From contig NZ_BOOH01000075.1 of assembly GCF_016863135.1 (NCBI RefSeq), positions 1 through 44,531 of the forward strand: DNA of 44,531 nt. The letters run 5' to 3'. Of this stretch, positions 1 through 24,216 are shown piece after piece. Made by a program: the position numbers and the translations under genes. The notes under the pieces were generated by a model that was given only the letters and a program-made list of their open reading frames with translations, did not search any database and was not told the DNA's origin. Position 1 is the first letter of the stretch, and every line of letters starts with the position of its first letter. The DNA is from Planobispora longispora (GTDB taxonomy: Bacteria; Actinomycetota; Actinomycetes; Streptosporangiales; Streptosporangiaceae).

Positions 1-68
1 CCGGGGTGCGCGCCGTACCGGCGCCAACCGCGCCGTACCGCCACGCGCCGTAGGCGCACCCCGCGCTG

Positions 69-3000: not shown

Positions 3001-3389
3001 GGCACCCCCGCCCGGCCGGCCAGGGCGCGGGCGGCGGCCTTGTCGCCGAACGCCTCCAGCGTCGCCGCCGCGGGCCCGACGAAGACGATGCCCGCCTCAC
3101 CGCAGCGCCGGGCGAACTCGGCGCTCTCGCTCAGGAAGCCGTACCCCGGGTGCAGGTGCGTCGCCCCGGCCTCGACGGCCACGCCCAGGATCTTCTCCAT
3201 GTCCAGGTACGCCGCGGCGCCCCGGCCGGGCAGCGGCCGCGTCTCGTCGGCGTGGAGCACGTGCGGCGATCGCGCGTCGTCCTCGGAGTGGACCGCGACC
3301 GAGTGCCAGCCCAGGTCCGCGGCGGCCCGCGCGACGCGCACCGCCACCTCTCCCCGGTTGGCGATGAACAGCGTCGGGCTGCCGTGCAT
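69..3389 (-). CDS. Single-chain acyl-CoA carboxylase (biotin carboxylase + BCCP + carboxyltransferase)
   Basis: One polypeptide of 1106 aa holds all three activities that carboxylate an acyl-CoA using ATP, bicarbonate and biotin. The biotin carboxylase lies at about residues 1-460 (starting FIANRGEVAVRVARAA, with a glycine-rich ATP-grasp loop, RRHQKLMEFAPAP and EVNPRLQVEHTVTEE). The biotin carrier domain covers about 500-575, with the biotinylation motif EAMKM and its lysine at 536. The carboxyltransferase covers about 600-1106. This order and size match the long-chain acyl-CoA carboxylase type (LCC) known from mycobacteria, which forms a homo-hexamer; that assignment rests on architecture. 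I chose the ATG at 3389 because the family begins directly at the ANRGE strand; an in-frame start at 3485 would place the operator inside the gene. A 28-bp inverted repeat about 60 bp upstream suggests TetR control. The chain length of the substrate cannot be read from the sequence. Confidence 0.9.
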   Translation of the reverse strand: MHGSPTLFIANRGEVAVRVARAAADLGWHSVAVHSEDDARSPHVLHADETRPLPGRGAAAYLDMEKILGVAVEAGATHLHPGYGFLSESAEFARRCGEAGIVFVGPAAATLEAFGDKAAARALAGRAGVPVVPGTPEAATPELAGAFMDALDGRAVVLKALAGGGGRGIRVVRDRAALAAAHAEAGAEALAASGAGGLYVEAFVEDARHVEVQIVGDGHRVAHLWERDCSVQRRHQKLMEFAPAPALDPALRARLIEAALRLAGEVRYEGLGTVEFLVGPDGAFFFIEVNPRLQVEHTVTEELTGVDLVAAQLRIAAGARLRDLGLEGHLDPSLPPPAASAVQLRVTMESLSPDGRVSVSGGTLRAFEPPGGPGLRVDAFARAGFSPGLGFDTLLAKLVVSRSGSDLPALLRRAARALSEFRIEGVATNIGLLRAVLDQPALRDAQVTTAWLETRLPELLAAAEALPRGRFLPDPAENTAGGADGPSGVPDASEAAVPPGTVAVAAPTSGTVIAVEAGPGAAVRAGQTLAVLEAMKMRFPVEAPVGGRVHGLAVRIGDTVADGRPVLFLEPYGGQEDARDTAAPAPQDLDHVRPALREVRERWELTRDPARPEPVARRHALGHRTARENVAALLDPDSLNEYGAFAVAAQRRRRGEEELLRRTPADGLITGVGTVNADLFGPGAACAVAAYDYTVLAGTQGYNNHRKLDRLVELAGRWRWPLVLFAEGGGGRPGDTDAPWVSALDTTSFVRFAELSGRVPLVGVVNGRCFAGNAALLGCCDVIIATRDSTIGMGGPAMIEGGGLGVHTPEEIGPVSVQAPNGVCDIVVEDEEEAAATARRYLAYFQGDLAGWSCADQRELRFLLPEDRQRVYDVRRVLDTLADTGSVLELRAAFAPGMITALARFEGRPFGVLANDPAVLGGAITAANADKAARFLNLCEAHRLPVLSLVDTPGFMVGPASEREAAVRHVCRLFLRAAKLTVPLFSVTLRKGYGLGAQAMTGGAFHSPALNVAWPTGEFGGMGLEGAVRLSMRRELEAVADPGEREKLFQDMVALAYEQGRAVNVAAHLEIDAVIDPAETREWLGRALRASPVPPLRPEGLFVDSW

Positions 3390-3449
3390 CGGGCTCCTCA
3401 CTGCGCGGGCGTCGCCGTACGCCATGGGACAGCGGACCTGCCGGTCGAC

Positions 3450-3477
3450 CGGACATACCGATCGGTCGGTATGTCCG
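3450..3477. promoter_or_regulatory. TetR-type operator, 12-bp arms, 4-nt centre
   Basis: CGGACATACCGA and TCGGTATGTCCG are perfect reverse complements separated by TCGG. Only one base pair in the whole 28 bp breaks the dyad. It lies 61-88 bp upstream of the carboxylase start and on the promoter side of the amylase gene. A further ACATACC half-site follows at about 3482-3488. The ACCGA...TCGGT core is typical of TetR-family operators. No TetR gene is adjacent, so the regulator is elsewhere. Confidence 0.75.
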
Positions 3478-3655
3478 CCGAACATACCACCGTCCCCCGC
3501 GCCCCCGGCAGCCGCCGCCGGGGCGGCCCCGGACGGGAGACCCGCACGCCAAGATGGCCGCGGAGATCCTGGACCCGTTCCCGCCCTCCCGGTTGGATGG
3601 GTCTTCTACGGCCGAACCCGACGGGCCGTCCGCGGACGGCGAACGGGAGGAGACC

Positions 3656-5473
3656 ATGGCGACCCCCATCCCCGGCCCCGCGCCGGCCACGCTCGCCGGG
3701 CTCGACCTGACCCCGCGCGAGCAGGTCCGGCCGAGCCCGGTCACCTGGCGGGACCAGATCCTGTACTTCCTGCTGCCCGATCGCTTCAGCGACGGCGGTG
3801 AGGCGGGACGCCCCCGGTTCGACCGGGCCCGCCCGGAGGAGTTCCGGGTCTCCGACCACCGGGCGTGGGAGGAGGCGGGCACGCGCTTCCAGGGCGGGAC
3901 GCTGAAGGGGATCACCGGCAGGCTCGGCTACCTGCGCGGGCTCGGCGTCACCACGCTGTGGATCGGGCCGGTCTGGCGGCAGCGGCCGGACCTGCAGACC
4001 TACCACGGCTACGGCATCCAGGACTTCCTGGACGTCGATCCGCGCTTCGGCACCCGCCAGGACCTGCGGGACCTGGTCGACGCGGCGCACGGCCTCGGGA
4101 TGTACGTCCTGCTGGACGTGATCTACAACCACACCGGGGACAACTGGTTCTACGACCGCGACGGCGAGGCCGTCAGCGATCTCCCCTACCGGTTCCGGCC
4201 GCCCCACCCCGTCCACGGCTGGCGCTCGGCGACGGGCAGGAGCGTACGGGAGATCGGGTCGCGGGACGACGGCGTCTGGCCGGTCGAGTTCCAGCGCGCC
4301 GACTGGTACACCCGCGCCGGGCGGATCGGCCGCTGGGACCCCGAGCCCTGGGAGCATCCGCTCCACCCCGACAACGAGTTCCGGCGCGGCGACTTCTTCA
4401 CGCTCAAGGACCTCGCCCTGGACCGCGACGACGCCCTCTCGGCCGTCATCGACGTCTACAAGTACTGGATCGCGCTCAGCGACTGCGACGGCTTCCGCAT
4501 CGACACCGTCAAGCACGTCTCCTGGGAGGCCTCGCGCAACTTCTGCGGCGCGATCCGCGAGTACGCCGAGTCCATCGGGAAGGAGAACTTCCTGCTGCTC
4601 GGCGAGGTGACCGGGGGCGGCGCCATGGCCCGCCACTACCTGGACGTCTTCGGCCGCAACGTCGACGCCGTGCTCGACATCGGCGAGCCCGCCCGGCTCC
4701 TGGCCGACCTGGTCAAGGGATCCGCCGCGCCCGCGGAGTTCTTCGGCCAGTTCCGCGGGCACGACATCCTCGGCGGCCACCGCGAGACCGGCCGCTACCA
4801 CGTGTCGATACTGGACGACCACGACATGGTCGGCCGCGCCAAGCGGCGGTTCTGCGCGGGCGGCGGCGCTCCGGAACGGGTCGCGCACGCGGTCGGCGTC
4901 CAGCTCACCACGCTCGGCATCCCCTGCGTCTACTACGGCACCGAGCAGGCCTTCGACGGCGCGGCCCCCGGCGGCGACGGCGACGACCGCTACCTCCGGG
5001 AGAGCATGTTCGGCGGCTCCTTCGGCGCCTTCCGGACCTCCGGCTGCCACTTCTTCGACCCCGGCCACCCCGCCTACCTGCGCATCGCGGCGATCGCCGC
5101 GCTGCGCAACCGGGCCGACCGCGTCGGGCTCACGCTGCGGCGGGGCCGCATGTACCTCCGCGAGACGGACGAGGGAGGCGGTTTCCGGTTCCCTCAGGCC
5201 GGTGAGCTGACCGCCTGGTCACGGCTGCTCCACGACCAGGAGGTGCTCATCGCCCTCAACACCGACGGCGCGCGCCCCCGGCGGGCGGAGATCACGGTCC
5301 ACGCGCCCTTCCACCGCGACGGATCGGCCATGACGGTGCTCTACCGCGGGGACTGGAAGGACGAGCAGCTGCGTGATCCGCCGGCGGGCGAGGTCGTGCC
5401 GGTCGTCTTCCGGGACGGGCGCGGCGCCGTACGGCTCGAGCTGCCCCCGGCGGGGATGATGATCCTGGCGTGA
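3656..5473 (+). CDS. Alpha-amylase family (GH13) glycoside hydrolase
   Basis: The 605-aa protein is a retaining alpha-glucan hydrolase or transferase acting inside the cell: it has no signal peptide. The four GH13 regions are present: DVIYNH (residues 154-159), GFRIDTVKH with the nucleophile D283 and its partner R281, LLGEVTG with the acid/base E317, and LDDHDM with D390 (normally NHD, here DHD). A C-terminal beta-sandwich follows from about residue 520. The ATG at 3656 is preceded by GGGAGG at 3645-3650; an upstream in-frame start at 3554 lacks such a site. It is divergent from the carboxylase and shares its promoter region, but I see no metabolic link. Substrate (maltodextrin, glycogen or trehalose-related) is not determined. 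Confidence 0.88.
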   Translation: MATPIPGPAPATLAGLDLTPREQVRPSPVTWRDQILYFLLPDRFSDGGEAGRPRFDRARPEEFRVSDHRAWEEAGTRFQGGTLKGITGRLGYLRGLGVTTLWIGPVWRQRPDLQTYHGYGIQDFLDVDPRFGTRQDLRDLVDAAHGLGMYVLLDVIYNHTGDNWFYDRDGEAVSDLPYRFRPPHPVHGWRSATGRSVREIGSRDDGVWPVEFQRADWYTRAGRIGRWDPEPWEHPLHPDNEFRRGDFFTLKDLALDRDDALSAVIDVYKYWIALSDCDGFRIDTVKHVSWEASRNFCGAIREYAESIGKENFLLLGEVTGGGAMARHYLDVFGRNVDAVLDIGEPARLLADLVKGSAAPAEFFGQFRGHDILGGHRETGRYHVSILDDHDMVGRAKRRFCAGGGAPERVAHAVGVQLTTLGIPCVYYGTEQAFDGAAPGGDGDDRYLRESMFGGSFGAFRTSGCHFFDPGHPAYLRIAAIAALRNRADRVGLTLRRGRMYLRETDEGGGFRFPQAGELTAWSRLLHDQEVLIALNTDGARPRRAEITVHAPFHRDGSAMTVLYRGDWKDEQLRDPPAGEVVPVVFRDGRGAVRLELPPAGMMILA

Positions 5474-14694: not shown

Positions 14695-17397
14695 TCATAC
14701 CGGCTCCTCCTCCTCGGCGGTGCGCGCCGGCGCGATGCGGCGGCGCAGGGCCCGGCGGGCGTAGGCGCGGACGTCGGCGTCGGAGTCGGACAGGGCGGTG
14801 CGCAGCGCGGCGGCGACCTCCGGCCGGGCCGCCCACGGGCCCAGTGCGAGCACGACCGCCTTGCGCACGTCGAGGTTGCCGTCGTCCAGCGTCGCGATGA
14901 GCGGTCCGGCCGCGTCCGCCGGATCGCCCGCCCCCAGGCACCGGGCCGCGCCGACCCGTACCTGCCAGGCGGGATCCCGCAGGGCCCGTACGGCCTGGGC
15001 GAGCAGGGGTGAGCCGGTGGCGCCGGAGGATTCCAGGGCGGCGGCCCGGACGAGCGGGTCGGGGTCGTCGGCGAGCCCGGCCAGCGCCGCGGACGGCTTG
15101 CCGATCGTGCCCAGGCCCGTGGCGACCCGGACGCGGACCTCGCGGGAGGCGTCGCCCGCCGCGGCGGCGACCAGATCGCTCTCGTCCAGGGAGACCAGGC
15201 CCCGGATCGCCTCGATGCGGACCCGGTGGTCGGCGTCCCGCGTCCCTTCGGCGAAGATCTCCGGTGTTCCCAGGCGCAGCGCCCGCAGCATGTCCAGGAC
15301 GGTGCTCCGGACCGCGGGGTCGGGGCTGTCCGCTCGCGCGGCGAGGTCCGCACCGAGCGCGGGGGTGGCGGGCAGCACCTCGACCAGCTCGCGCAGGCCG
15401 CCGGCCGCGGCCCGCCGTACCGTGCCGTGGTCGTCGGCGAGCGCGGCGGCCAGCGCCCCGCCCACGCCCTCCGGGACGGTCTCGGTGAGCGCCGCGATCG
15501 CCGCCCGGCGCACCTTGGGGTCGGGGTCGGCGAGGTAGGGGGCGAGCCGGTCCAGGGAGGGCTGCTCCTCGGCGAGGCGGTGCAGCTCCAGGATCCGGGG
15601 GGAGCGTCCGACGGCGGCGTGGCCGGTGCGGGCCGCCGCGGTACGGCGCACCGCGGTGCTCGTGTGGGCGCCGACGAGCACGGGCTCCGCCCGGACCGGC
15701 TGGAACTCCTCGACCGGCACCAGGTACGGCTCGACGGGCCGCTTGAGGAACTCCATCGCGCCGTCGGGCCGCCTGCGCAGGTTCAGGTGGAACAGCCAGG
15801 AGGCGTCGTCGCGGACGGGCAGGTCGGCCCGCTCGTGGTAGAGGCCCCAGCGGCTCTCGGTCCGCACCAGCGAGGAGCGGGCGGCCATCTCCGCGCAGTC
15901 GCGGATGAAGTCCACCTCCACGCAGCGCATCAGCTCGTGCGGGGTGCGCGCGCCCATCGTCGCGATCTCCTCGCGCATGCGCTCGAAGGACTCCAGGGCG
16001 ATCTCCAGCTTGGCGCCGGTCTTGGGCGGGGCGACGTAGTCGTTGACGAAGCGGCGCAGCTTGTACTCGACCTGCGGCTGCGGCGGCCCGTCGGGGTTGC
16101 GCAGCGGGCGGTAGACGAGCTCGTGGGCCGCGGCGATCTGGTCTCCGGGGAGCGTCTCCGGGACGGCGTGGCGCGCGGCGGCGTGGGCCCCGGCGAGGTC
16201 GCCGAAGACGAACGCCCCGATCATGTAGTTGTGCGGCACGCAGGCCAGGTCGCCGGCCGCGTACAGGCCGGGGACGGTCGTGGCGCCGTTCTCGTCCACC
16301 CACACGCCCGAGGCCGAGTGGCCCCCGCACAGGCCGATCTCGGAGATGTGCATCTCCACGTCGTGGGTGCGGTAGTCGTGGCCGCGCCCGGCGTGGAAGG
16401 TGCCGCGGGTGGGCCGCTCGGTGGAGTGCAGGATGTTCTCCACCGCGGTGACCGTCTCGTCGGGCAGGTGGGAGAGTTTGAGGTAGATCGGGCCGCGGGC
16501 GGAGGCGATCTCGGCGGCGACCTCGGCCATCATCTGACCCGACCAGTAGTCGGAGTCGACGAACCGCTCCCCCCGGTTGTTGACCTGGTAGCCGCCGAAC
16601 GGGTTGGCGACGTAGGCGCAGGCCGGGCCGTTGTAGTCCTTGATCAGCGGGTTGATCTGGAAGCACTCGATGCCGCTGAGCTCGGCGCCGGCGTGGTAGG
16701 CCATGGCGTAGCCGTCCCCGGCGTTGGCCGGGTTCTCGTAGGTCCCGTAGAGGTAGCCGCTGGCCGGCAGGCCGAGCCGCCCGCAGGCGCCGGTGGCCAG
16801 GACGACCGCCCCGGCCCGCACGGTGACGAACCCCCCTCCGCGCGTGTCGAACCCGGCGACGCCCACCGCCCGGCCGCCCTCGGTCAGGACCCGGACCGGC
16901 ATGACCCGGTTCTCGATCCGGACCCGGTCCCGGATGTCGCGGCGGCGCAGCACCCGGTAGAGGACCTTCTTGACGTCCTTGCCCTCGGGCATGGGCAGCA
17001 CGTAGCTGCCGGAGCGGTGCACGCGGCGCACGGCGTACTCGCCGTAGTCGTCCTTCTCGAACTTGACTCCGTAGCCTTCGAGCCTGCGGACCATGTCGTG
17101 GCCGCGGGTCGCGGTCTGGTGGATCGTCTTCTGGTTGACGATCCCGTCGTTGGCCCGGGTGATCTCGGCGACGTAGTCCTCGGGGGTGGCCTTGCCGGGG
17201 ATGACGGCGTTGTTGACGCCGTCCATGCCCATGGCCAGGGCCCCGCTGTGCCGTACGTGGGCCTTCTCCAGCAGCAGCACCCGCGCGCCGCGCTCGGCCG
17301 CGGTGATCGCGGCCATCGTGCCGGCGGTCCCGCCGCCGACGACGAGCACCTCGCACTCGAGTTCGAGGCGGTCCTCGATCGGGGGGATCTCCGTCAC
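14695..17397 (-). CDS. AprA/fumarate-reductase-like flavoprotein with C-terminal HEAT repeats
   Basis: The 900-aa protein has two parts. Residues 1 to about 560 are a FAD_binding_2 flavoprotein: GGGTAG at 21-26, LATGACGRLG, and an FAD-contacting end segment VPGLYAAGDLA followed by PHNYMIGAFVFGDLAG. This resembles the alpha subunit of APS reductase and succinate/fumarate dehydrogenases. Residues about 610-890 are roughly nine HEAT repeats (LADPDPKVRRAAIAAL and similar). No signal peptide is present, so it acts in the cytoplasm. The GTG start overlaps the ATPase stop by four bases, making it the last gene of the six-gene operon. The AprB-like ferredoxin of the operon is its likely electron partner. 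HEAT repeats suggest a docking or regulatory role. The exact reaction is unknown; I see no domain that decides between sulfur-oxyanion and C=C reduction. Confidence 0.85.
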   Translation of the reverse strand: MTEIPPIEDRLELECEVLVVGGGTAGTMAAITAAERGARVLLLEKAHVRHSGALAMGMDGVNNAVIPGKATPEDYVAEITRANDGIVNQKTIHQTATRGHDMVRRLEGYGVKFEKDDYGEYAVRRVHRSGSYVLPMPEGKDVKKVLYRVLRRRDIRDRVRIENRVMPVRVLTEGGRAVGVAGFDTRGGGFVTVRAGAVVLATGACGRLGLPASGYLYGTYENPANAGDGYAMAYHAGAELSGIECFQINPLIKDYNGPACAYVANPFGGYQVNNRGERFVDSDYWSGQMMAEVAAEIASARGPIYLKLSHLPDETVTAVENILHSTERPTRGTFHAGRGHDYRTHDVEMHISEIGLCGGHSASGVWVDENGATTVPGLYAAGDLACVPHNYMIGAFVFGDLAGAHAAARHAVPETLPGDQIAAAHELVYRPLRNPDGPPQPQVEYKLRRFVNDYVAPPKTGAKLEIALESFERMREEIATMGARTPHELMRCVEVDFIRDCAEMAARSSLVRTESRWGLYHERADLPVRDDASWLFHLNLRRRPDGAMEFLKRPVEPYLVPVEEFQPVRAEPVLVGAHTSTAVRRTAAARTGHAAVGRSPRILELHRLAEEQPSLDRLAPYLADPDPKVRRAAIAALTETVPEGVGGALAAALADDHGTVRRAAAGGLRELVEVLPATPALGADLAARADSPDPAVRSTVLDMLRALRLGTPEIFAEGTRDADHRVRIEAIRGLVSLDESDLVAAAAGDASREVRVRVATGLGTIGKPSAALAGLADDPDPLVRAAALESSGATGSPLLAQAVRALRDPAWQVRVGAARCLGAGDPADAAGPLIATLDDGNLDVRKAVVLALGPWAARPEVAAALRTALSDSDADVRAYARRALRRRIAPARTAEEEEPV

Positions 17398-18161
17398 AGC
17401 TCCTCCAGGATGCGTTCACGCAGGTTCGTACGGGCGTCGTCGCCGTCGGGCACGTCCAGGACGGCCCGCACCCCGGTACGGCCCAGCACCGCGACGCGGT
17501 CGCCCAGCAGCAGCGCCTCGTCCACGTCGTGGGTGACGAACACGACCGTCGCCGAGGTGTCGCGCAGCACGTCCAGCAGCAGGCGCTGCATGCCGACGCG
17601 GGTCTGCGCGTCCAGCGCGCCGAACGGCTCGTCCATCAGCACCGCGCGCGGCGCGCCGACCAGGGCCCGGGCCAGCTGCACCCTTTGGCGCATGCCGCCG
17701 GACAGCTCGCGGGGCAGGTGCCCGGCGAACCCGTCCAGCCCGACCTTCTCGATCCACTCCCGCGCGGCCCGCCCGCGCTCGCCCCGGGACACGCCCCGGA
17801 TGCGCAGCGGCAGCTCGACGTTGCGCCGGACCGAGCGCCACGGCAGCAGCCCGTCGTCCTGGAAGACCATGGCGCGGTCCGCCGAGGGACCGGTGACCTC
17901 CCGTCCGCCGGCGAGGATCCGGCCCTCGCGCGGCGGGAGCAGCCCGGCCAGGGCGCGCAGCAGCGTGGACTTCCCGGAGCCGGAGGCGCCCACGACGACC
18001 AGGACCTCGCCCGGCGCCACATCCAGCTCGACGTCCCGCAGCACGGCGTCCCGGCCGTAGCCGAGGCCCGCCCGTTCCAGCCGGAAGGCGAGACCCGCGC
18101 CGCCCGCCGCCGTGCTCCCGGCTTCCGCCCGTCCGGTGGCGCTCTCCGCGACCGACGTCAT
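17394..18161 (-). CDS. ABC importer ATPase, sulfonate/nitrate (SsuB/TauB) type
   Basis: The 255-aa nucleotide-binding subunit energises import by the permease encoded upstream. It has Walker A GASGSGKST, Q-loop VFQDDGLLPW, signature LSGGMRQRVQLARAL, Walker B AVLMDEPFGALD and H-loop VFVTHDVDEA. The ATG at 18161 follows GGGAG and overlaps the permease stop (ATGA). A longer open frame upstream runs through the permease gene and is not used. Its closest families import aliphatic sulfonates, taurine or nitrate. Confidence 0.92.
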   Translation of the reverse strand: MTSVAESATGRAEAGSTAAGGAGLAFRLERAGLGYGRDAVLRDVELDVAPGEVLVVVGASGSGKSTLLRALAGLLPPREGRILAGGREVTGPSADRAMVFQDDGLLPWRSVRRNVELPLRIRGVSRGERGRAAREWIEKVGLDGFAGHLPRELSGGMRQRVQLARALVGAPRAVLMDEPFGALDAQTRVGMQRLLLDVLRDTSATVVFVTHDVDEALLLGDRVAVLGRTGVRAVLDVPDGDDARTNLRERILEEL

Positions 18162-19030
18162 CGCCTGCTCCCTTCCGCTCGGGGCAGCCAGCGGGTGGCC
18201 CGCCGCCCGATCAGTTCGATGGCGGCCGAGGTCAGCCAGCCGAGGACGCCGATAGTGATCATTCCGACGATCACCCCCGGGTAGTCGACGACCGTGTAGG
18301 CGTGCCAGGTCCGGTAGCCCACCCCGAACTCGCCGGAGATCATCTCGGCGGAGATCACGCAGATCCACGCCACGCCCATGCCGACCGAGAGCCCGCCGAA
18401 CACGCCCGGCAGGATGCCGGGCAGGACGACGTTCCACAGCACGTGGCGGCGGGTCCCGCCGAGGGTCCTGACCGCCTCCTCCCAGATCGTCGGCAGTGCC
18501 CGTACGGCGTGCCGCGTGCTGACCGTGACGGGGAAGAAGGCCGCGGTGAAGGTGATGAAGACGATGCCCTGCTCGTCGGTGGGGAAGAGCAGGATCGCGA
18601 TCGGCACCAGGGCGATGGCCGGGATCGGCCGGACCGCCTCCAGCAGCGGCAGCAGCACGTCGCCCGCGCGCCGGGAGCGGGCCACGAGGATGCCCGCGGT
18701 GATCCCGGCGACCGCGGCGAGGCCGAAGCCGGTGAGGATGCGGATGAGGCTCTGCAGCAGGTCGAGGTAGTACAGCGGGGTCGTCAGCTGCCCGGCGAAC
18801 CGCTCGGCGATCTCACCGAGCGTGGGGAGGCGGTCGAAGCGCAGCCACAGGCGCGCGTCGGCGGCCGTGAGCGCCTGCCACAGGCCGGCCGCCGCCAGCA
18901 GGGAGGCCGCCCGGATCCCCCACCGGAGCGCGGCCCGGCCGCCCGCCGTCCCCCGGGAACCGGCCGGACCTGCGGCCGCGGCCGTACCGGACGACGAGGA
19001 GCGGGTGAGCGTCTGAGGGCCGGCTATCAT
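18158..19030 (-). CDS. ABC importer permease, sulfonate/nitrate (SsuC/TauC) type
   Basis: The 290-aa inner-membrane subunit has about six helices. An Ala/Ser-rich cytoplasmic N-terminus precedes the first (RAASLLAAAGLWQAL). The EAA loop that contacts the ATPase is clear: EEAVRTLGGTRRHVLWNVVL followed by PGILPG. The start ATG at 19030 overlaps the binding-protein stop by four bases, and its stop overlaps the ATPase start by four. With one permease gene the channel is presumably a homodimer. Confidence 0.92.
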   Translation of the reverse strand: MIAGPQTLTRSSSSGTAAAAGPAGSRGTAGGRAALRWGIRAASLLAAAGLWQALTAADARLWLRFDRLPTLGEIAERFAGQLTTPLYYLDLLQSLIRILTGFGLAAVAGITAGILVARSRRAGDVLLPLLEAVRPIPAIALVPIAILLFPTDEQGIVFITFTAAFFPVTVSTRHAVRALPTIWEEAVRTLGGTRRHVLWNVVLPGILPGVFGGLSVGMGVAWICVISAEMISGEFGVGYRTWHAYTVVDYPGVIVGMITIGVLGWLTSAAIELIGRRATRWLPRAEGSRR

Positions 19031-20487
19031 GCGCCGTCCTCGCCCGCGGCGGCCTTCAGGGCGTCGTCGTAGGAGATGGTCTCGGCTCCGCCGTGGGCGT
19101 CGAGGTAGGCCCTGGCCCCGTCCTCGGTGGTGAAGGGCAGGAAGCGGGCGTTCTCCTCCGCGTCCGGGTCCTCGACCCAGAAGGCCCGGTCGGCGAACCA
19201 GCGGGTGCCGGTCGCGGCGTCGGGCACGTAGGCGGCGCGGACGTCCGCCGCCCCGTCCGCCTTCGCCTTCGCGATCCCGCGCAGCAGGCAGGCGGGGGTC
19301 GCCGCGGGGCGGGTGGTCTTCTCGCCGGCGAGCCAGAGCTCGGAGGCGGTGGCGGGGTCCTTCACCGGGATTCCGCAGACCGGGTCGTCCCCGGTGATCG
19401 CGGCGGGGTTGGCGGTGGAGGCGGTGTCGGCGTCGTAGGCCGGGCCGTACGCCTCGCGCAGGTGGGAGTCGTTGACGAAGCGGGTCAGGTCCACCCCGGA
19501 GAAGCCGTCGCCGATGCGCTTGAGGTAGGGCACGTCGTGCTCGTGGGCGGCCTTGAGCTGCGGCTTGAGGGTGACGTCGAAGGTGGAGATGCCGCCGGGG
19601 CCGTTGTAGAGGTAGACGACCTCGGCCGGGAGCCCGGTCTCCTCCGCGACCGACTCGGCCGCCTCCAGCGGGTGCTCGTGCAGGTAGCGGGTGGCGTCGA
19701 TCTGCGCCTTGAGGAAGGCGTCGACGACCTCGGGGTGCTCCTCGGCGTAGGCCGCGCGCACCACGGTGCCGTGGAAGGTCGGCACGTCCAGGGCGGCGCC
19801 GTCGTAGAGCAGCCGGGCCTTGTCCTGGAAGACCAGCAGGCCGGGCCAGGCGACGAACTGGGCGTACCCCTGGACGGTCCCGGCCTCCAGCGCGGAGGCG
19901 CCGACCGGCGGCTGCTGGTTGACGGTCTCGACGTCGCTCACCGGGTCGATCCCGGCCTTCTCCAGCGCCTGGACCAGGGTGCCGTGCCCGGCGGAGCCGA
20001 CGCTGGCGGAGATCTTCTTCCCCCTGAGGTCGGCCAGGGTCCTGGCCTCGGAGTCCTTCGCGACGACGACCATGTTGAGCGCGCCGCGCAGGTTGTAGCC
20101 GGTGACGGCGACCAGCTCGGTGCGGGCCGCCTCGACGCCCTGCGTGCGGGAGGCGTTGATCAGCAGCGGATAGTCGCCCATCGAGCCGATGTCGACCTTC
20201 CCGGCCACCATCTTCGCGGTGATCGGCGCGCCGGTGTCGTGGTCCTGCCATTCGACGGTGTACCGGTCTCCGAGCCGCTTCTCCAGGTAGCCGAGCGAGC
20301 GCAGCAGCGTGCCCGCGGTCACCGTGTTGATCGTCTTGGACTGGTAGCCGATGACGACCCGGATCTTCCCGGCGTCGTCACCGCCGTCGCCGCCCGCGGC
20401 GCCGGCGACCGAGCAGCCCGCGACGGCCAGCAGCAGGGCGGCCGCGGCCGCCGCACGGAGGGGGTTCATCTTCGCAGGGTCCTTCAT
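19027..20487 (-). CDS. Sulfonate-type binding lipoprotein fused to a NosL-like domain
   Basis: The 486-aa exported lipoprotein has signal peptide and lipobox AVAGC near residue 25. Residues about 40-350 are an SsuA/NMT1-type binding protein (IRVVIGYQSKTINTV, GKVDIGSMGDYPLL). From residue 368 the chain departs from that family: PVCGIPV (C371), a second cysteine in PACLLRG, YVPDAATGTRWFADRAFWV, then FLPFTTEDGARAYLDAHGG. This order matches the copper-binding lipoprotein NosL (CGM.V, Y..D..TG.W.DA..A.YV, F...E.A..F...GG), but CGM is CGI here, losing the methionine ligand. ATG 20487 overlaps the ferredoxin stop by four bases like the other junctions; ATG 20469 with AAGGA upstream is an alternative. 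Confidence 0.83.
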   Translation of the reverse strand: MKDPAKMNPLRAAAAAALLLAVAGCSVAGAAGGDGGDDAGKIRVVIGYQSKTINTVTAGTLLRSLGYLEKRLGDRYTVEWQDHDTGAPITAKMVAGKVDIGSMGDYPLLINASRTQGVEAARTELVAVTGYNLRGALNMVVVAKDSEARTLADLRGKKISASVGSAGHGTLVQALEKAGIDPVSDVETVNQQPPVGASALEAGTVQGYAQFVAWPGLLVFQDKARLLYDGAALDVPTFHGTVVRAAYAEEHPEVVDAFLKAQIDATRYLHEHPLEAAESVAEETGLPAEVVYLYNGPGGISTFDVTLKPQLKAAHEHDVPYLKRIGDGFSGVDLTRFVNDSHLREAYGPAYDADTASTANPAAITGDDPVCGIPVKDPATASELWLAGEKTTRPAATPACLLRGIAKAKADGAADVRAAYVPDAATGTRWFADRAFWVEDPDAEENARFLPFTTEDGARAYLDAHGGAETISYDDALKAAAGEDGA

Positions 20488-20711
20488 CGCAGCAGGTAGG
20501 GGATGTTGATGGTGACCGCGTCCACGGGGCAGCGGGCGGCGCACGGGCCGCAGTACCAGCACTCGTCGACGTACATGTAGGCCTTTCCGGTCTCGTCGCT
20601 GATGGCGAGCGAGTCGAGCGGGCACGCCTCCACGCAGAGCGTGCAGCCGTCGATGCACAACGCCTCGTCGATGGTCACCGGGACCTCGACGCGCTGGGTG
20701 ATCAGGGGCAT
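20484..20711 (-). CDS. AprB-like 2[4Fe-4S] ferredoxin
   Basis: A 75-aa soluble electron carrier. Cluster motif one is CIDGCTLCVEACP (Cx3Cx2Cx3CP) and motif two is CWYCGPCAARCP (Cx2Cx2Cx3CP). The spacing around the second motif (DECWYCGPCAARCPVDAVTI) recalls the beta subunit of APS reductase (ECW.C..C...CP..AI). The position in an operon with an AprA-like flavoprotein supports a two-subunit enzyme. It lacks the long C-terminal arm of AprB. GAGGAG precedes the ATG, which overlaps the regulator gene by ten bases. Confidence 0.9.
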   Translation of the reverse strand: MPLITQRVEVPVTIDEALCIDGCTLCVEACPLDSLAISDETGKAYMYVDECWYCGPCAARCPVDAVTINIPYLLR

Positions 20712-21544
20712 GTGTTCTCCTCGGGGTCCTCGGCGCGCTTCACGTCCTCGGCGCGCTCCACGTGCTCCACGTGCTCCGCGTCCTCGACGTCCTCGACGTC
20801 ACGGTGCAGGTGACCGCGCATGGCCAGGCGGTCCCCGCGGAAGCGGACGAACTCCAGGTCGACGGGGCGCCCGTCCGCCAGGTGGGTGAGCCGCTCGATC
20901 ATGAGGAGCGCGGCCCCCCGCGGGGCGTCGAGCACGGCGGCGGTGTGGGCGTCGGCGTTGACGGCCTCCACGGTCAGCTCCGCCGTGCCGAGCGGCTGCC
21001 CGGTGATCCGCTCCAGCAGCACGAAGATGTCGTTGCGTTCGAGATCGGCGTCGAACAGCGGCTCGCCGGCGTCGCGGACGAGGTAGGTCAGGTCGAGCGA
21101 GAGCGGCAGGCCGTTCAGGCGGCGCAGCCGTTCCAGGTAGACGACCTGCTCTCCGGCAGCCAGCCCGAGGCGGCGCCCGACCGCGGCGGGCGGCTCGACG
21201 AGGCTCATGGTGCGGACCTCGTTGCTCACCTCACCGTGCTCGTGGAGCGTCTCGGCCAGGCCGAGCAGCCGGTGCAGGCCGTGCGGGTACTTCTCGGCGG
21301 CGACCGTGGTGCCCACACCGGGGCAGCGTTCCACGAGACCCTCGCCGCGCAGCAGGTCCAGCGCCTCACGCACGGTGTTGCGGGAGGTCCCGAACTCGCG
21401 GGCGAGCGCGGCCTCCAGCGGCAGCCGCCCCCGGCCGTACCCGCCGTGCACGATCTCCCGGCGGAGCAGGTCGGCCACCTGCCTGGCCCGGTCGGCCCTG
21501 CTGCGCCGCGCGCCGCCCACGGTGGATGCGCCCGCATTCCCCAT
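20702..21544 (-). CDS. GntR-family regulator, HutC/UTRA type
   Basis: The 280-aa regulator has an N-terminal winged helix (LPLEAALAREFGTSRNTVRE at about 40-60) and a UTRA effector domain (about 95-245; YLERLRRLNGLPLSLDLTYL). It is the first gene of the operon and its start faces a palindrome at 21594-21611, so it is probably an autoregulator that also controls the divergent dioxygenase gene. The last 30 residues are a charged three-residue repeat (DVE/HVE/RAE) encoded by a 9-bp DNA repeat and are not part of the UTRA fold. GGGAGG precedes ATG 21544. Confidence 0.9.
   Translation of the reverse strand: MGNAGASTVGGARRSRADRARQVADLLRREIVHGGYGRGRLPLEAALAREFGTSRNTVREALDLLRGEGLVERCPGVGTTVAAEKYPHGLHRLLGLAETLHEHGEVSNEVRTMSLVEPPAAVGRRLGLAAGEQVVYLERLRRLNGLPLSLDLTYLVRDAGEPLFDADLERNDIFVLLERITGQPLGTAELTVEAVNADAHTAAVLDAPRGAALLMIERLTHLADGRPVDLEFVRFRGDRLAMRGHLHRDVEDVEDAEHVEHVERAEDVKRAEDPEENTCP
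20719..20801. repeat. 9-bp tandem repeat encoding the tail of the GntR protein
   Basis: About nine imperfect copies of a (G/C)(A/T)CGTCCTC-like 9-mer lie at the 3' end of the regulator gene, giving D/H/R-V/A-E triplets in the protein. Because the unit is a multiple of three, copy-number change would keep the frame. Confidence 0.65.
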
Positions 21545-21593
21545 GCCCGCCTCCCGGCGTCCCTCGACGTGATGACGGACATAACCCTACTCA

Positions 21594-21611
21594 ACCAGTA
21601 GGAATACTGGT
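21594..21611. promoter_or_regulatory. Candidate GntR operator
   Basis: ACCAGTA-GGAA-TACTGGT is a perfect dyad with 7-bp arms, 50 bp upstream of the gntR start. Its form (AT-containing arms ending GT/AC) suits a HutC-type GntR protein. The surrounding 320-bp intergenic region is markedly AT-richer than the genes. Confidence 0.65.
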
Positions 21612-21743
21612 GTAACGAGGAGATTGCGCCACCCGCAGGGCCGCCCCCACCCCCTCCACCTCGTCTTTCTCCGCCCAGAGCCGGAGAACCGCCATCGGTT
21701 CCGCCGTGAGGCGATCGATCCGGAGCGGATCCAATTTCATGTA

Positions 21744-21766
21744 TTCCCTATTGACTTATAGGGGAA
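21744..21766. promoter_or_regulatory. Second dyad near the dioxygenase promoter
   Basis: TTCCCTAT-TGACTT-ATAGGGGAA is an inverted repeat with one bulged base. It overlaps TTGACT (21751-21756), which could serve as a -35 element for the dioxygenase gene starting at 21865. It differs from the ACCAGTA dyad, so a second regulator or a transcript hairpin is possible. Confidence 0.45.
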
Positions 21767-21864
21767 TTTGACGCAAAGTCGTGGCTGTGAGCAGCGAGCT
21801 TCCGACCTCGCACCGCCACGTCGATCTCCGGCGACATCACGTCAGAACCCATGGAGGCCGTCTC

Positions 21865-22824
21865 ATGTCAGCAACCGTCACCACCCTCGCGGTCCGGCGC
21901 GTCGCCGGGCACATCGGCGCGGAGATCACCGGCGTCGACCTCTCCCATCCGCTCGACCCCACCACGGTCGCCGAGATCCGCCAGGCCCTGCTCGCGTACA
22001 AGGTCGTGTTCTTCCGCGGCCAGACCCTGGACCACTCCTCACAGATCGCCTTCGCCCGCCAGTTCGGCGAGCTCACCCACGCCCACCCGCACGAGGACGC
22101 GCCGCCGGAGGAGTTCCCGCAGATCCTCACCATCGATCCGCTCCGCTACGAGGAGCGTTACGGGGCGAAGTACCGCGAGCTCTACCGCAAGCGGCAGTAC
22201 TCCTACTACTCCGGCTGGCACACCGACGTCACCGCCGCGGTCAACCCGCCCGCCGCCTCCATCCTGCGCGCGGAGACCGTCCCGGAGTACGGCGGCGACA
22301 CCCAGTGGACCAACCTGGTGGCCGCCTACGAAGGCCTGTCCGAGCCGCTGCGCCGCTTCGTCGACGGCCTGCGCGCCGAGCACCGCTTCCTCGCCGGCTA
22401 CCAGACCACCGACGAGGACGGCAGGCTGCTCAAGCGGATCAACGACAACCTGCTGGTCTCCGTCCACCCCGTGGTCCGGGTCCACCCGGAGACCGGGGAG
22501 CGGGCCCTGTTCGTCAACCCCGGCTTCACCGACCGCATCGTCGGCGTCTCCTCCCAGGAGAGCCGGCGCATCCTGGAACTGCTCTACGAGCAGATCACCC
22601 GCCCCGAGTACACCGTCCGCTTCCGCTGGGCTCCGGGCAGCGTCGCTTTCTGGGATAATCGCGCCACCGCCCACCTGGCCCCCACCGACCTCGACCACCT
22701 CGACGTACGGCGCACGCTGCACCGCGTCACCCTGATCGGCGACCGGCCCGTCGGCCCCGACGGGTTCGTCTCGGAGATCGTCGCCGGCCGCGAGTTCACC
22801 GCGGAGTCCCTGGTCGTCGCCTGA
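21865..22824 (+). CDS. TauD/TfdA-family 2-oxoglutarate dioxygenase
   Basis: The 319-aa enzyme is expected to hydroxylate its substrate using Fe(II), O2 and 2-oxoglutarate; TauD relatives release sulfite from sulfonates this way. The iron ligands are H119 and D121 (WHTDVT) and H270 (RATAHLAP). R283 and R287 (RTLHR) are placed to bind 2-oxoglutarate and substrate. Length is slightly above the 283 residues of E. coli TauD because of an insertion around residues 85-115. GGAGG at 21853-21857 supports ATG 21865. Being divergent from the sulfonate-type importer and sharing its control region points to a sulfonate or sulfate ester as substrate (inference). Confidence 0.88.
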   Translation: MSATVTTLAVRRVAGHIGAEITGVDLSHPLDPTTVAEIRQALLAYKVVFFRGQTLDHSSQIAFARQFGELTHAHPHEDAPPEEFPQILTIDPLRYEERYGAKYRELYRKRQYSYYSGWHTDVTAAVNPPAASILRAETVPEYGGDTQWTNLVAAYEGLSEPLRRFVDGLRAEHRFLAGYQTTDEDGRLLKRINDNLLVSVHPVVRVHPETGERALFVNPGFTDRIVGVSSQESRRILELLYEQITRPEYTVRFRWAPGSVAFWDNRATAHLAPTDLDHLDVRRTLHRVTLIGDRPVGPDGFVSEIVAGREFTAESLVVA

Positions 22825-22941
22825 CGGCCCGGATCACCGCCGGTGTCCGGCGATCCACCCCATGAGCGCGGGCGGGGGCCCTGGGGGGTGTCCCCCGCCC
22901 GTTCCCCACGGCGGCCCGAGCGGCCGCGGAAAGGCACTCCT

Positions 22942-24216
22942 GTGAGTGACATGCCCGTGGCTTCACCGTTGCCGGCTGGCCCCGCGGTGGCGACGGGAAT
23001 CGCCGGAGCAGACGAGGCGGAGCCACCCGGCACCGTCCGCCTCGGACGGACCAGGCTGTTCATCCTGCTCGGCGCGCTGACCTCGATAGGCCCGCTCGCC
23101 ATCGACCTCTACCTGCCGGCGCTCCCCCGGCTCGCCGCCGACCTGGACGCGAGCGCCTCCGCGGCCCAGCTCTCCCTCACCACCTTCATGGTGGGGCTCG
23201 GAACGGGTCAGGTGATCGTCGGCCCGCTCAGCGACGCCTTCGGCCGCAAGCGCCCGCTGCTGATCGGATTCGCCGCCTTCTGCGTGGCGTCCGCGCTGTG
23301 CGCGCTGTCCCCGTCGATCGAACTCCTCGTCGCGTTCCGCCTCCTGCAGGGGCTGACCGCCGCCACCGGCGTCGCCCTGACCAAAGCCGTGGTCCGCGAC
23401 CTGCACGGGGGGATCGAGGCGGCCCGGTTCTTCAGCATGCTGATGCTGGTGACCGGCCTGGTCCCGCTCCTGGCGCCGCTCCTGGGGGCGCAGTTGCTCC
23501 GGGTGGTCGGGTGGCAGGGGCTGTTCGGGGTCATCACCGCGGCGGGGGGACTGCTCTGGCTCATCGCCCTGCTGGTGCTCCCGGAGACGCACCCGCCGCG
23601 CCTGCGGACCGGCGCGGGGCCCGGCGCGGTCCTGCGGTCGCTCGCCACGGTGATCCGGAACCGGACCTTCGCCGCCCTCGCCCTCACCGCGGCCTTCGCG
23701 AGCGGCGCGATGTTCTGCTACATCTCCGGCGCCTCCTTCGTCCTGCAGGAGGTGTACGGGCTCTCCCCGCAGGGCTTCAGCCTGCTGTTCGGCGTCAACT
23801 CGGCCGGCATGATCATCACCGGGCAGCTGGCCGGCCGGCTCGCCGGGCGCGTCCCGATGCGCCGCCTGCTCACGGTCGGCCTCGCCCTGGCGGGCGTCGC
23901 CGGGGTGCTGCTGCTGGTGGCGGCCCTCGCCGGCCTCGGCCTGCCCTGGGTGATGTCCGCCCTGTTCCTGGTGAGCTCGGGGCAGGGCCTGATCTACCCC
24001 ATGACGCTGACCCTCGCCATGTCCAGCCAGCCCACGTTCCGCGCCGGGAGCGCCTCGGCCCTCTTCGGGCTGGTGCAGTGGGTCGCCGGCGGGCTCACCG
24101 GGCCGATCTCGGGCGCCTTCGGCACGCACACCGCGGTGCCTCTCGCCGTGACCGTCGCGCTCCTCAGCCTGGCCGCGTGCCTGTCGGGGAATGTGCTCCT
24201 GCGCGGGGTCCGCTGA
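22942..24216 (+). CDS. Bcr/CflA-type MFS exporter
   Basis: A 424-aa membrane protein with about 12 helices. The first-helix segment GPLAIDLYLPALP and motif A (GPLSDAFGRKRPLLIG) identify the DHA1 Bcr/CflA group of drug/proton antiporters, some of which also export cysteine or sulfonamides. GTG 22942 lies 7 nt after AAAGG; ATG 22951 is a weaker alternative. It follows the dioxygenase gene on the same strand after 117 bp, so it may belong to the same regulon. A hairpin (CGCCCGT/ACGGGCG, 24226-24251) follows. Confidence 0.88.
   Translation: MSDMPVASPLPAGPAVATGIAGADEAEPPGTVRLGRTRLFILLGALTSIGPLAIDLYLPALPRLAADLDASASAAQLSLTTFMVGLGTGQVIVGPLSDAFGRKRPLLIGFAAFCVASALCALSPSIELLVAFRLLQGLTAATGVALTKAVVRDLHGGIEAARFFSMLMLVTGLVPLLAPLLGAQLLRVVGWQGLFGVITAAGGLLWLIALLVLPETHPPRLRTGAGPGAVLRSLATVIRNRTFAALALTAAFASGAMFCYISGASFVLQEVYGLSPQGFSLLFGVNSAGMIITGQLAGRLAGRVPMRRLLTVGLALAGVAGVLLLVAALAGLGLPWVMSALFLVSSGQGLIYPMTLTLAMSSQPTFRAGSASALFGLVQWVAGGLTGPISGAFGTHTAVPLAVTVALLSLAACLSGNVLLRGVR

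What the first reader, a model, noticed from the sequence alone, without database searches (positions are those of the whole stretch)
14695..22824. Candidate new organosulfur uptake and redox system: importer, AprA/B-like pair, TauD, GntR
Six overlapping minus-strand genes (regulator, AprB-like ferredoxin, binding protein, permease, ATPase, AprA-like flavoprotein) face a TauD-family dioxygenase across a palindrome. The sequence shows the overlaps and motifs directly. Families known: SsuA/B/C-type importers bring in sulfonates; TauD releases sulfite; AprA/AprB interconvert APS and sulfite. Inference: imported organosulfur is opened by the dioxygenase and its product, or another oxyanion, is handled by a flavin/Fe-S enzyme dedicated to this locus. 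I know no characterised pathway with this set, and a dissimilatory-type AprAB-like pair in an uptake operon is unexpected in an aerobic actinomycete.
Basis: partly seen in the sequence, partly recalled or inferred. Interest (0 to 1): 0.88.

Follow-up and report, generated by a model that had tools for sequence, protein, structure and literature searches.

The report
Import-and-reduction operon for sulfonate-like compounds
A six-gene bacterial operon, found with the same gene order in many actinobacteria and in related form in proteobacteria and cyanobacteria, probably imports one sulfonate-like compound and reduces it with a flavin and iron-sulfur enzyme whose reaction nobody seems to have described.

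Summary
The gene layout is real: six minus-strand genes overlapping by 10/4/4/4/4 bases (GntR, 75-aa ferredoxin, binding protein, permease, ATPase, flavoprotein with C-terminal HEAT repeats) and a divergent TauD. Of the 80 named loci kept, all actinobacterial, 74 hold all six genes and only 2 a TauD in the fetched flanks: TauD is a neighbour, not a part. Flavoprotein, ferredoxin and a separate HEAT gene recur in 15 of 15 non-actinobacterial plasmid loci fetched. The flavoprotein is in the AprA superfamily, but in 11 of 11 members AprA positions R265, R317 and W234 are L, M and Y, while N74 and H398 are kept; the genome also has CysH and NirA. So it is hardly an APS or PAPS reductase. The binding protein keeps sulfonate-contact positions of TauA/SsuA in 16 of 16 sequences, with a different, uniform organic side, and carries a NosL/MerB-fold domain. 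Best reading: one sulfonate-headed compound is imported and reduced by a ferredoxin-fed flavoenzyme, probably releasing sulfite. Substrate and reaction are inferred. My open-access searches found no description.

The parts
20702..21544 (-). GntR-family regulator with UTRA ligand-binding domain; first gene of the operon
   Evidence: Pfam UTRA 115.6 bits, GntR 57.8; present in 76 of 80 loci
20484..20711 (-). 75-aa ferredoxin with two 4Fe-4S motifs; electron donor/beta-subunit candidate for the flavoprotein
   Evidence: 78 of 80 loci; PAPS reductase beta subunit 8a8o_C is its best short-chain PDB match, 34 bits, rank 10 after polyferredoxins and larger proteins
19027..20487 (-). Substrate-binding lipoprotein: SsuA/TauA-like binding domain plus C-terminal NosL/MerB-fold domain
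   Evidence: SsuA_fam 140 bits; sulfonate-contact positions kept; C-terminal domain model pLDDT 91.4, Foldseek top 7 all NosL or MerB2
19030..19440 (-). C-terminal NosL/MerB-fold domain of the binding protein (stretch modelled)
18158..19030 (-). ABC permease
   Evidence: BPD_transp_1 82.9 bits; 75 of 80 loci
17394..18161 (-). ABC ATPase
   Evidence: best NCBIfam model TauB 219 bits, below its cut-off of 357; 75 of 80 loci
14695..17397 (-). FAD flavoprotein (residues about 1-570, AprA/fumarate-reductase superfamily) fused to HEAT repeats (about 600-890)
   Evidence: NF010374 1570 bits against cut-off 1196, NF006131 866 against 587; best PDB match 8a8o_A 190 bits
21586..21611 (.). Palindromic element upstream of GntR (CCTACT..AGTAGG overlapping ACCAGTA..TACTGGT), candidate operator/promoter
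   Evidence: the first pair of arms recurs in some relatives
21862..22824 (+). Divergent TauD-family dioxygenase: neighbour, not a conserved member
   Evidence: TauD 208.5 bits, best PDB 5hsx 343 bits; TauD in the fetched flanks of 2 of 80 loci

Best explanation
The operon is one import-and-reduce system. The lipoprotein catches one particular small compound with a sulfonate-type head, the permease/ATPase pair brings it in, and the flavoprotein-ferredoxin pair reduces it in the cytosol: electrons go from a cellular donor to the two 4Fe-4S clusters, then to FAD, and the flavin attacks or reduces the substrate, most likely cleaving off sulfite for assimilation by NirA. The HEAT domain is a partner or scaffold. 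GntR (elsewhere LysR, or Crp/Fnr nearby) senses the compound. Shown by sequence: operon, families, conservation, replaced AprA positions, kept sulfonate-contact residues. Inferred: substrate class, reductive direction, sulfite as product. TauD is a separate sulfur-scavenging gene.
For: Six genes together in 74 of 80 named loci and in 8 of the 11 relative loci that hold the flavoprotein, 3 of 11 keeping only GntR-ferredoxin-flavoprotein. Flavoprotein, ferredoxin and HEAT gene in 15 of 15 non-actinobacterial plasmid loci fetched, full importer in 12 of 15. Binding proteins: the Gln and Gly61 that touch the sulfonate in TauA/SsuA (PMC6906117, passages read) are kept in 16 of 16 and position 79 is Gly/Ala in 16 of 16, while E106 and W176 on the organic side are N and F in 16 of 16: one sulfonate-like ligand, not taurine. 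Cyanobacterial LysR regulators carry a copy of the same binding domain. Reductive direction: dedicated ferredoxin; genes annotated FdxA and ferredoxin-NADP reductase in Methylobacterium (FNR model 171 bits of 390); FdxA plus a 1153-aa Pyr_redox_2 protein in A. caldus. Sulfite: genes annotated TauE/SafE beside it in 4 of 15 and YeiH or sulfate exporter in 3 of 15 plasmid loci. Precedent: nitrogenase-like isethionate reductase with SsuCAB (PMC11423573, passages read).
Against: No substrate or activity is shown. In actinobacteria most loci have no recognised sulfur gene nearby: 7 of 80 against 0 of 40 control windows, and 2 of the 7 supplied query sequences. AprA Arg265 is Leu here, so a sulfate-like group would have to be held differently. 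The exporter names are record annotations: one YeiH copy tested scores 219 bits, under its cut-off of 233, and one TauE copy tested matched no NCBIfam model at 1e-10. The kept Gln/Gly pattern was not tested against binding proteins of this fold with known non-sulfonate ligands. In my alignment TauA D205 falls opposite a Tyr of SsuA, where the paper names Gly187 (of X. citri SsuA), so that column is unsure. Electron-supply genes are seen in only 2 plasmid loci.
Confidence: 0.4

Rival explanations
1. Import and redox conversion of a non-sulfonate compound (a carboxylate, nitrogen compound or phosphonate) by an SsuA/NrtA-type importer and a fumarate-reductase-superfamily enzyme; the sulfur neighbours are coincidental.
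For: The binding-protein fold serves many ligands; Phosphonate-bd 37.5 bits, permease best model is nitrate NtrB (126 of 209), GntR best model is PhnF (113 of 157). Most actinobacterial loci lack recognised sulfur neighbours.
Against: Sulfonate-contact Gln/Gly kept in 16 of 16; SsuA and TauA models score best for the binding protein; annotated or model-supported TauE, YeiH, TauD, SfnB-like, NtaA-type, sulfatase or MetX/MetY neighbours in unrelated lineages.
Confidence: 0.3
2. The pair works in the oxidative direction: it oxidises the imported compound (or sulfite) and reduces ferredoxin.
For: AprA/AprB is reversible (stated in PMC10322725, section 9); the sulfur oxidiser A. caldus carries the system.
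Against: Genes annotated as ferredoxin-NADP reductase and FdxA alongside fit a supply of electrons; MtPAPSR, the closest solved relative, showed no measurable reverse reaction (PMC10322725, section 9). AprA positions R265, R317 and W234 are replaced.
Confidence: 0.12
3. Metal or metalloid handling: the NosL/MerB-fold domain and three invariant cysteines (C245, C260, C357), placed near the flavin pocket by alignment only, handle an organometal or oxyanion such as an arsenical.
For: NosL and MerB2 are the only confident fold matches of the C-terminal domain; C245 and C260 stand where AprA has H259 and G274 in 11 of 11; SaoP is the permease's second-best model, though far under its cut-off (112 of 295).
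Against: The C-terminal domain has no invariant Cys, Met or His in 35 sequences, though one His is kept in 90% or more. No metal-resistance gene recurs in the annotated stretches that I read; a chromate efflux gene stands beside it in one.
Confidence: 0.08
4. A true APS or PAPS reductase, as the AprA/AprB likeness suggests.
For: Best solved relatives of the flavoprotein are MtPAPSR and AprA; the ferredoxin matches the MtPAPSR and AprB small subunits among others.
Against: AprA positions replaced in 11 of 11, models far below cut-off, separate 100/100 clade, CysH with the ECGIHL motif next to NirA in the same genome.
Confidence: 0.04
5. One reading: TauD opens the imported organosulfur compound and the flavoprotein handles its product.
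For: Divergent arrangement in the window; TauD in the flanks of two ABC-less loci, L048 and L080, and in Sinorhizobium chiapasense.
Against: TauD in the flanks of only 2 of 80 loci, and none in the 19 kb fetched around the 95% identical flavoprotein of a same-genus relative (L024).
Confidence: 0.06

Closest known systems
NCBIfam NF010374/PRK13800 and NF006131/PRK08275 ('fumarate reductase/succinate dehydrogenase flavoprotein subunit')
   Same: The flavoprotein is a member by score (1570 against 1196; 866 against 587), HEAT part included in NF010374.
   Different: Their names give no reaction beyond the superfamily's, and the superfamily name is misleading here, since fumarate-reductase motifs are absent.
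PAPS reductase of Methanothermococcus thermolithotrophicus (MtPAPSR, PDB 8a8o; PMC10322725, section 9 and passages read)
   Same: Closest solved relative of the flavoprotein, and of the ferredoxin among short chains; FAD subunit plus small two-cluster ferredoxin subunit; assimilatory setting.
   Different: MtPAPSR keeps AprA R265, R317, W234; this family has L, M, Y and a loop about 6 residues longer. No importer or HEAT partner is described in the section read.
Dissimilatory APS reductase AprAB
   Same: Superfamily, N74 and H398 kept, 8-Cys ferredoxin partner.
   Different: Scores 121 of 642 (AprA) and 26 of 136 (AprB), R265/R317/W234 replaced, ferredoxin of 75 aa against 150-166 for AprB chains.
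SsuABC/TauABC sulfonate importers
   Same: Same importer class, sulfonate-contact positions kept.
   Different: Extra NosL-fold domain on the binding protein, different organic-side pocket, below the cut-offs of both family models.
Isethionate reductase IsrBHDK with SsuCAB (Rhodobacter capsulatus, PMC11423573, passages read)
   Same: Works alike in concept: sulfonate import plus oxygen-independent, presumed reductive release of sulfite.
   Different: Nitrogenase-like enzyme and radical SAM protein, not a flavin/ferredoxin pair of this family; studied under anaerobic conditions.

Membership tests
Dissimilatory APS reductase (AprAB) | Alpha subunit over the AprA model cut-off (TIGR02061, 641.75) | tested here: not met
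   121.2 bits
Dissimilatory APS reductase (AprAB) | Beta subunit over the AprB model cut-off (TIGR02060, 135.65) | tested here: not met
   25.6 bits
Dissimilatory APS reductase (AprAB) | Substrate/flavin-site residues R265, R317, W234 (roles recalled) and Q145 (named in PMC10322725) | tested here: not met
   L, M, Y, V in 11 of 11; the Q145 column lies in a loop of differing length and is less sure
Dissimilatory APS reductase (AprAB) | N74 and H398 (roles recalled) | tested here: met
   11 of 11; H398 is shared with the SdhA rows too, so it does not discriminate
MtPAPSR-type PAPS reductase | R265, R317 and W234 as in MtPAPSR | tested here: not met
MtPAPSR-type PAPS reductase | PAPS reduction | not testable with these tools
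   needs enzyme assay
Fumarate reductase/succinate dehydrogenase | Over sdhA_frdA cut-off (TIGR01812, 567) and HPTG / NRLG-type motifs (roles recalled) | tested here: not met
   140 bits; NPLIKD and PHNYMIGAF instead
NF010374 (PRK13800) and NF006131 (PRK08275) | Over curated cut-offs | tested here: met
   1570/1196 and 866/587
SsuA/TauA sulfonate-binding proteins | Over SsuA_fam (163.5) or TauA (304) cut-off | tested here: not met
   140.2 and 97.7 bits
SsuA/TauA sulfonate-binding proteins | Sulfonate-contact Gln, Gly61, small residue at 79 | tested here: met
   16 of 16
SsuA/TauA sulfonate-binding proteins | Taurine amine contacts E106, D205 | tested here: not met
   N in 16 of 16 and H (15) or Y (1); the D205 column is unsure
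NosL copper chaperone | NosL fold | tested here: met
   7og7 probability 1.00, TM 0.64, Foldseek E 1e-3; Pfam NosL only 16 bits against 24
NosL copper chaperone | Copper ligands | tested here: inconclusive
   no invariant Cys/Met/His in 35 aligned domains, one His at 90% or more; ligand positions were not mapped on a structure
Taurine dioxygenase TauD | Over PRK09553 cut-off (313) | tested here: not met
   261 bits; Pfam TauD 208.5 against 27 met
SAO organometal operon | SaoX/SaoP/SaoA over cut-offs | tested here: not met
   38/300, 112/295, 176/360 bits

The most novel reading that the evidence does not exclude
A new enzyme class: an oxygen-independent, ferredoxin-driven flavoenzyme, related to the APS-reductase line, that reductively cleaves a specific imported sulfonate (or S-sulfonate) to sulfite in aerobic and even oxygen-producing bacteria, carried on chromosomes and plasmids in three phyla, with the imported ligand sensed in cyanobacteria by a regulator that holds a copy of the importer's own binding domain.
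Probability: 0.25. Interest if true: 0.86.

Novelty: new variant of a known kind. Interest (0 to 1): 0.62.

Why it matters
If the reading holds, aerobic soil bacteria, root symbionts and cyanobacteria have a way to take sulfur from a sulfonate without oxygenases, by a flavin/Fe-S enzyme related to APS reductase. It would also give a function to a large family (589 related stretches at E 1e-3 or better in one capped scan) whose database name, fumarate reductase/succinate dehydrogenase subunit, misleads metabolic reconstruction. The near-unchanged pocket across phyla says that one compound is involved, so a binding screen on one protein could settle the substrate.

Tried and rejected
APS/PAPS reductase: rejected on active-site positions, model scores, tree and presence of CysH/NirA. 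Fumarate reductase/SDH: rejected on motifs and scores. TauD as a member: rejected on 2 of 80 loci. A shared sulfur regulon from the CCCTATTGACTTATAGGG element before TauD: the only match in the genome at up to 3 mismatches is the window's own. Exact 7+7 palindrome as conserved operator: not kept. Known RNA element upstream: the 6 sources searched gave two matches at gathering threshold, both in the flanks of L045. Flavoprotein structure model: mean pLDDT 52.6, discarded, so the three cysteines are placed by alignment only. Viral contigs: 71 pattern matches, none confirmed. Sulfur-neighbour count in actinobacteria: 7 of 80 against 0 of 40; two of the seven (L080, L081) supplied queries, so 5 of 78 against 0 of 40 is the fairer comparison, and it is weak; three more loci with only a sulfonate-binding-protein hit were left out of the 7.

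Literature: 10 counted searches, open-access PMC only. Only (PRK13800: one fungal paper) asked for the family by accession; the others asked by gene names, neighbouring genes or related enzymes. No listed title or abstract describes this operon; passages of PMC13352529, PMC8305402, PMC5748707, PMC10418091 and PMC13188914 did not show it either.
Full report
What is there. Pfam and NCBIfam give GntR+UTRA; a 75-aa ferredoxin with two 4Fe-4S motifs; an SsuA/TauA-like binding protein; a permease; an ATPase; and a 900-aa protein made of FAD_binding_2, Succ_DH_flav_C and C-terminal HEAT repeats. The flavoprotein is over the cut-offs of NF010374/PRK13800 (1570 against 1196) and NF006131/PRK08275 (866 against 587), models named after fumarate reductase/succinate dehydrogenase. 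Against the fumarate reductase/succinate dehydrogenase subfamily model (TIGR01812) it scores 140 of 567, and against AprA (TIGR02061) 121 of 642.

How widespread. Mapping the window's proteins on these 80, at a fixed bit threshold per gene (TauD 120), gave flavoprotein 80, ferredoxin 78, GntR 76, each ABC gene 75, TauD 2; all six operon genes are in 74 of 80. Flanks are up to 9 kb and shorter at contig ends. Of the six exceptions, L052 and L082 are cut by contig ends, L048, L080 and L081 have ferredoxin and flavoprotein without the importer, and in L109, a 4.3-kb contig, the flavoprotein follows the ferredoxin with no room for an importer between them. Among relatives, 12 of 60 genomes, the window's own included, have an over-threshold flavoprotein. 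Across the phylum it is patchy: 8 of 296 genomes, own included. Plasmid records also hold it: 51 at E 1e-100 or better with the Cupriavidus protein. From the records I fetched 16 plasmid loci, chosen by hand for variety and without a control set: one actinobacterial with the fused form and 15 from proteobacteria and cyanobacteria. In those 15 the flavoprotein, the ferredoxin and a separate HEAT-repeat gene are present in 15 of 15; a complete importer with the long binding protein in 12 of 15 (apparently interrupted by an insertion sequence in A. caldus, not in the stretches of Nostoc and Mesorhizobium); a GBBH-like_N/DUF971 gene in 7 of 15; an Mrp/NBP35 Fe-S carrier in 4 of 15; a gene annotated TauE/SafE in 4 of 15; one annotated YeiH or sulfate exporter in 3 of 15.

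Not an APS reductase. The closest solved relative of the flavoprotein is the alpha subunit of the PAPS reductase of Methanothermococcus, 190 bits; its beta subunit is the ferredoxin's best short chain, 34 bits, behind polyferredoxins and larger proteins. On an alignment with MtPAPSR and A. fulgidus AprA, all 11 family members keep N74 and H398 but have L, M and Y at R265, R317 and W234, V at Q145, and a loop about six residues longer with an invariant YVLPMP. MtPAPSR keeps R265, R317 and W234. C stands at H259 and G274 in 11 of 11; with C357 these cysteines are invariant in both alignments made (13 and 24 rows). The roles of the numbered AprA residues are recalled, except Q145 and the general statement about retained catalytic residues, which are in PMC10322725 (section 9 and other passages read). 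A maximum-likelihood tree of 18 rows puts the 11 proteins in one 100/100 clade, apart from a 100/100 MtPAPSR+AprA pair (several long branches, so deeper order is unsure). The same genome has CysD and, side by side, CysH with the ECGIHL motif and a NirA-type sulfite reductase (L171; both named from recall of their motifs, CysH also by PF01507), so APS reduction is already served.

What the importer says. TauA contacts the sulfonate with Gln30 and the main chain of Gly61, Gly79 and Thr132, and the amine with Glu106, Thr132 and Asp205 (PMC6906117, passages read). Aligning 14 binding proteins of this system and two LysR sensor domains with TauA and SsuA fragments: Gln 16 of 16, Gly61 16 of 16, position 79 Gly or Ala 16 of 16, Ser131 16 of 16, position 132 Ala/Thr/Ser; but E106 is Asn in 16 of 16, W176 is Phe in 16 of 16 and D205 is His in 15 and Tyr in one. 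The Gln is read from the SsuA row, as the TauA fragment starts later. The D205 column is unsure: SsuA shows Tyr there, while the paper names Gly187 for X. citri SsuA. The head-group site thus looks like a sulfonate site, while the rest of the pocket is different and nearly the same in three phyla: one ligand, not taurine. I did not test same-fold proteins with other known ligands.

Two unusual fusions. The C-terminal 110-140 residues of the binding protein fold, in a confident model (pLDDT 91.4), like NosL: 7og7 at probability 1.00, TM 0.64 and E 1e-3, four NosL chains of NosDFYL complexes, MerB2 and one more NosL fill the first seven rows at probability 0.99-1.00; of the other 43 rows shown (57 in all) none is above 0.18. 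The domain lacks invariant Cys, Met or His in 35 sequences, with one His at 90% or more, so it may dock rather than carry metal. In two Pseudanabaena and one Leptolyngbya record the LysR regulator next to the genes ends in a copy of this binding domain without the NosL part (two of the three aligned), so the regulator probably senses the imported compound itself.

Direction and product. Methylobacterium has genes annotated FdxA and ferredoxin-NADP reductase in the cluster (the latter's best model scores 171 of 390) and A. caldus FdxA and a 1153-aa protein with a Pyr_redox_2 domain, which fits electrons flowing in. Genes annotated TauE/SafE and YeiH or sulfate exporter in cyanobacteria, and TauE/SafE in Aquabacterium, fit sulfite as product; of these I tested one of each, and YeiH scored 219 of 233 while TauE matched no NCBIfam model at 1e-10. 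Other sulfur-scavenging neighbours: SfnB-like (223 of 431 bits), NtaA-type and SsuA-like genes in Cupriavidus; sulfate and sulfonate transport and TauD in S. chiapasense; TauD, NtaA-type monooxygenase, sulfatase or MetX/MetY by L048, L080 and L081 (the short L109 shows none). Against this, a tblastn count found such genes near only 7 of 80 actinobacterial loci (0 of 40 fixed-position control windows from 8 genomes), and two of the seven supplied queries. The sulfur assignment therefore rests mainly on the binding-protein pocket and on other phyla.

Best reading. An import-and-reduce system for one sulfonate-headed compound: importer, then ferredoxin-driven flavoenzyme, probably releasing sulfite. 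It works like isethionate reductase plus SsuCAB (PMC11423573, passages read) in outline, with a different kind of enzyme. Ten open-access literature searches, most by gene names or related enzymes and one by family accession, found no description of this operon. I hold the substrate class and direction at about 0.4 and the exact chemistry lower.

Noticed in passing
L123:7661-9676, L124:7676-9676, L040:6301-8337: Cyanobacterial LysR-type regulators fused to a C-terminal periplasmic-type binding domain homologous to the importer's binding protein.
   Followed up: partly
window 19030-19440 and the binding proteins of relatives: NosL/MerB-fold domain fused to an SsuA-type binding protein, without invariant metal-type ligands.
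   Followed up: yes
L025/L026 about 1-4100; L024; window 21862-22824: In two same-genus relatives an Rrf2 regulator and another ABC importer lie directly upstream of the operon; in L026 a TauD fragment lies at the edge of the stretch. In L024 pieces of an MFS gene related to window 22843-24216 stand there and no TauD is found.
   Followed up: partly
upstream of GntR in relatives (rows) and window about 21600-21640: A GGTGGCG(C/T)AA-like element precedes the promoter-like CCTACT..AGTAGG element in many of the printed rows, also in Streptomyces and Kutzneria; possibly an activator site.
   Followed up: no
L121:16065-20324: On A. caldus plasmid pTcM1 the importer genes of this system appear split by an ISL3-type insertion sequence.
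   Followed up: no
L080:2646-4280: A second, distant FAD_binding_2 protein lies in the same direction a few kilobases before the ABC-less operon, near a sulfatase.
   Followed up: no
L013:1444-3201 and L015:1225-3246: Two further unnamed flavoproteins of the same superfamily in relatives, outside both the family described here and the MtPAPSR/AprA pair in the tree.
   Followed up: partly
L045:19494-19561: Match to the ASdes sRNA family (75 bits) several kilobases from the operon in Planotetraspora.
   Followed up: no
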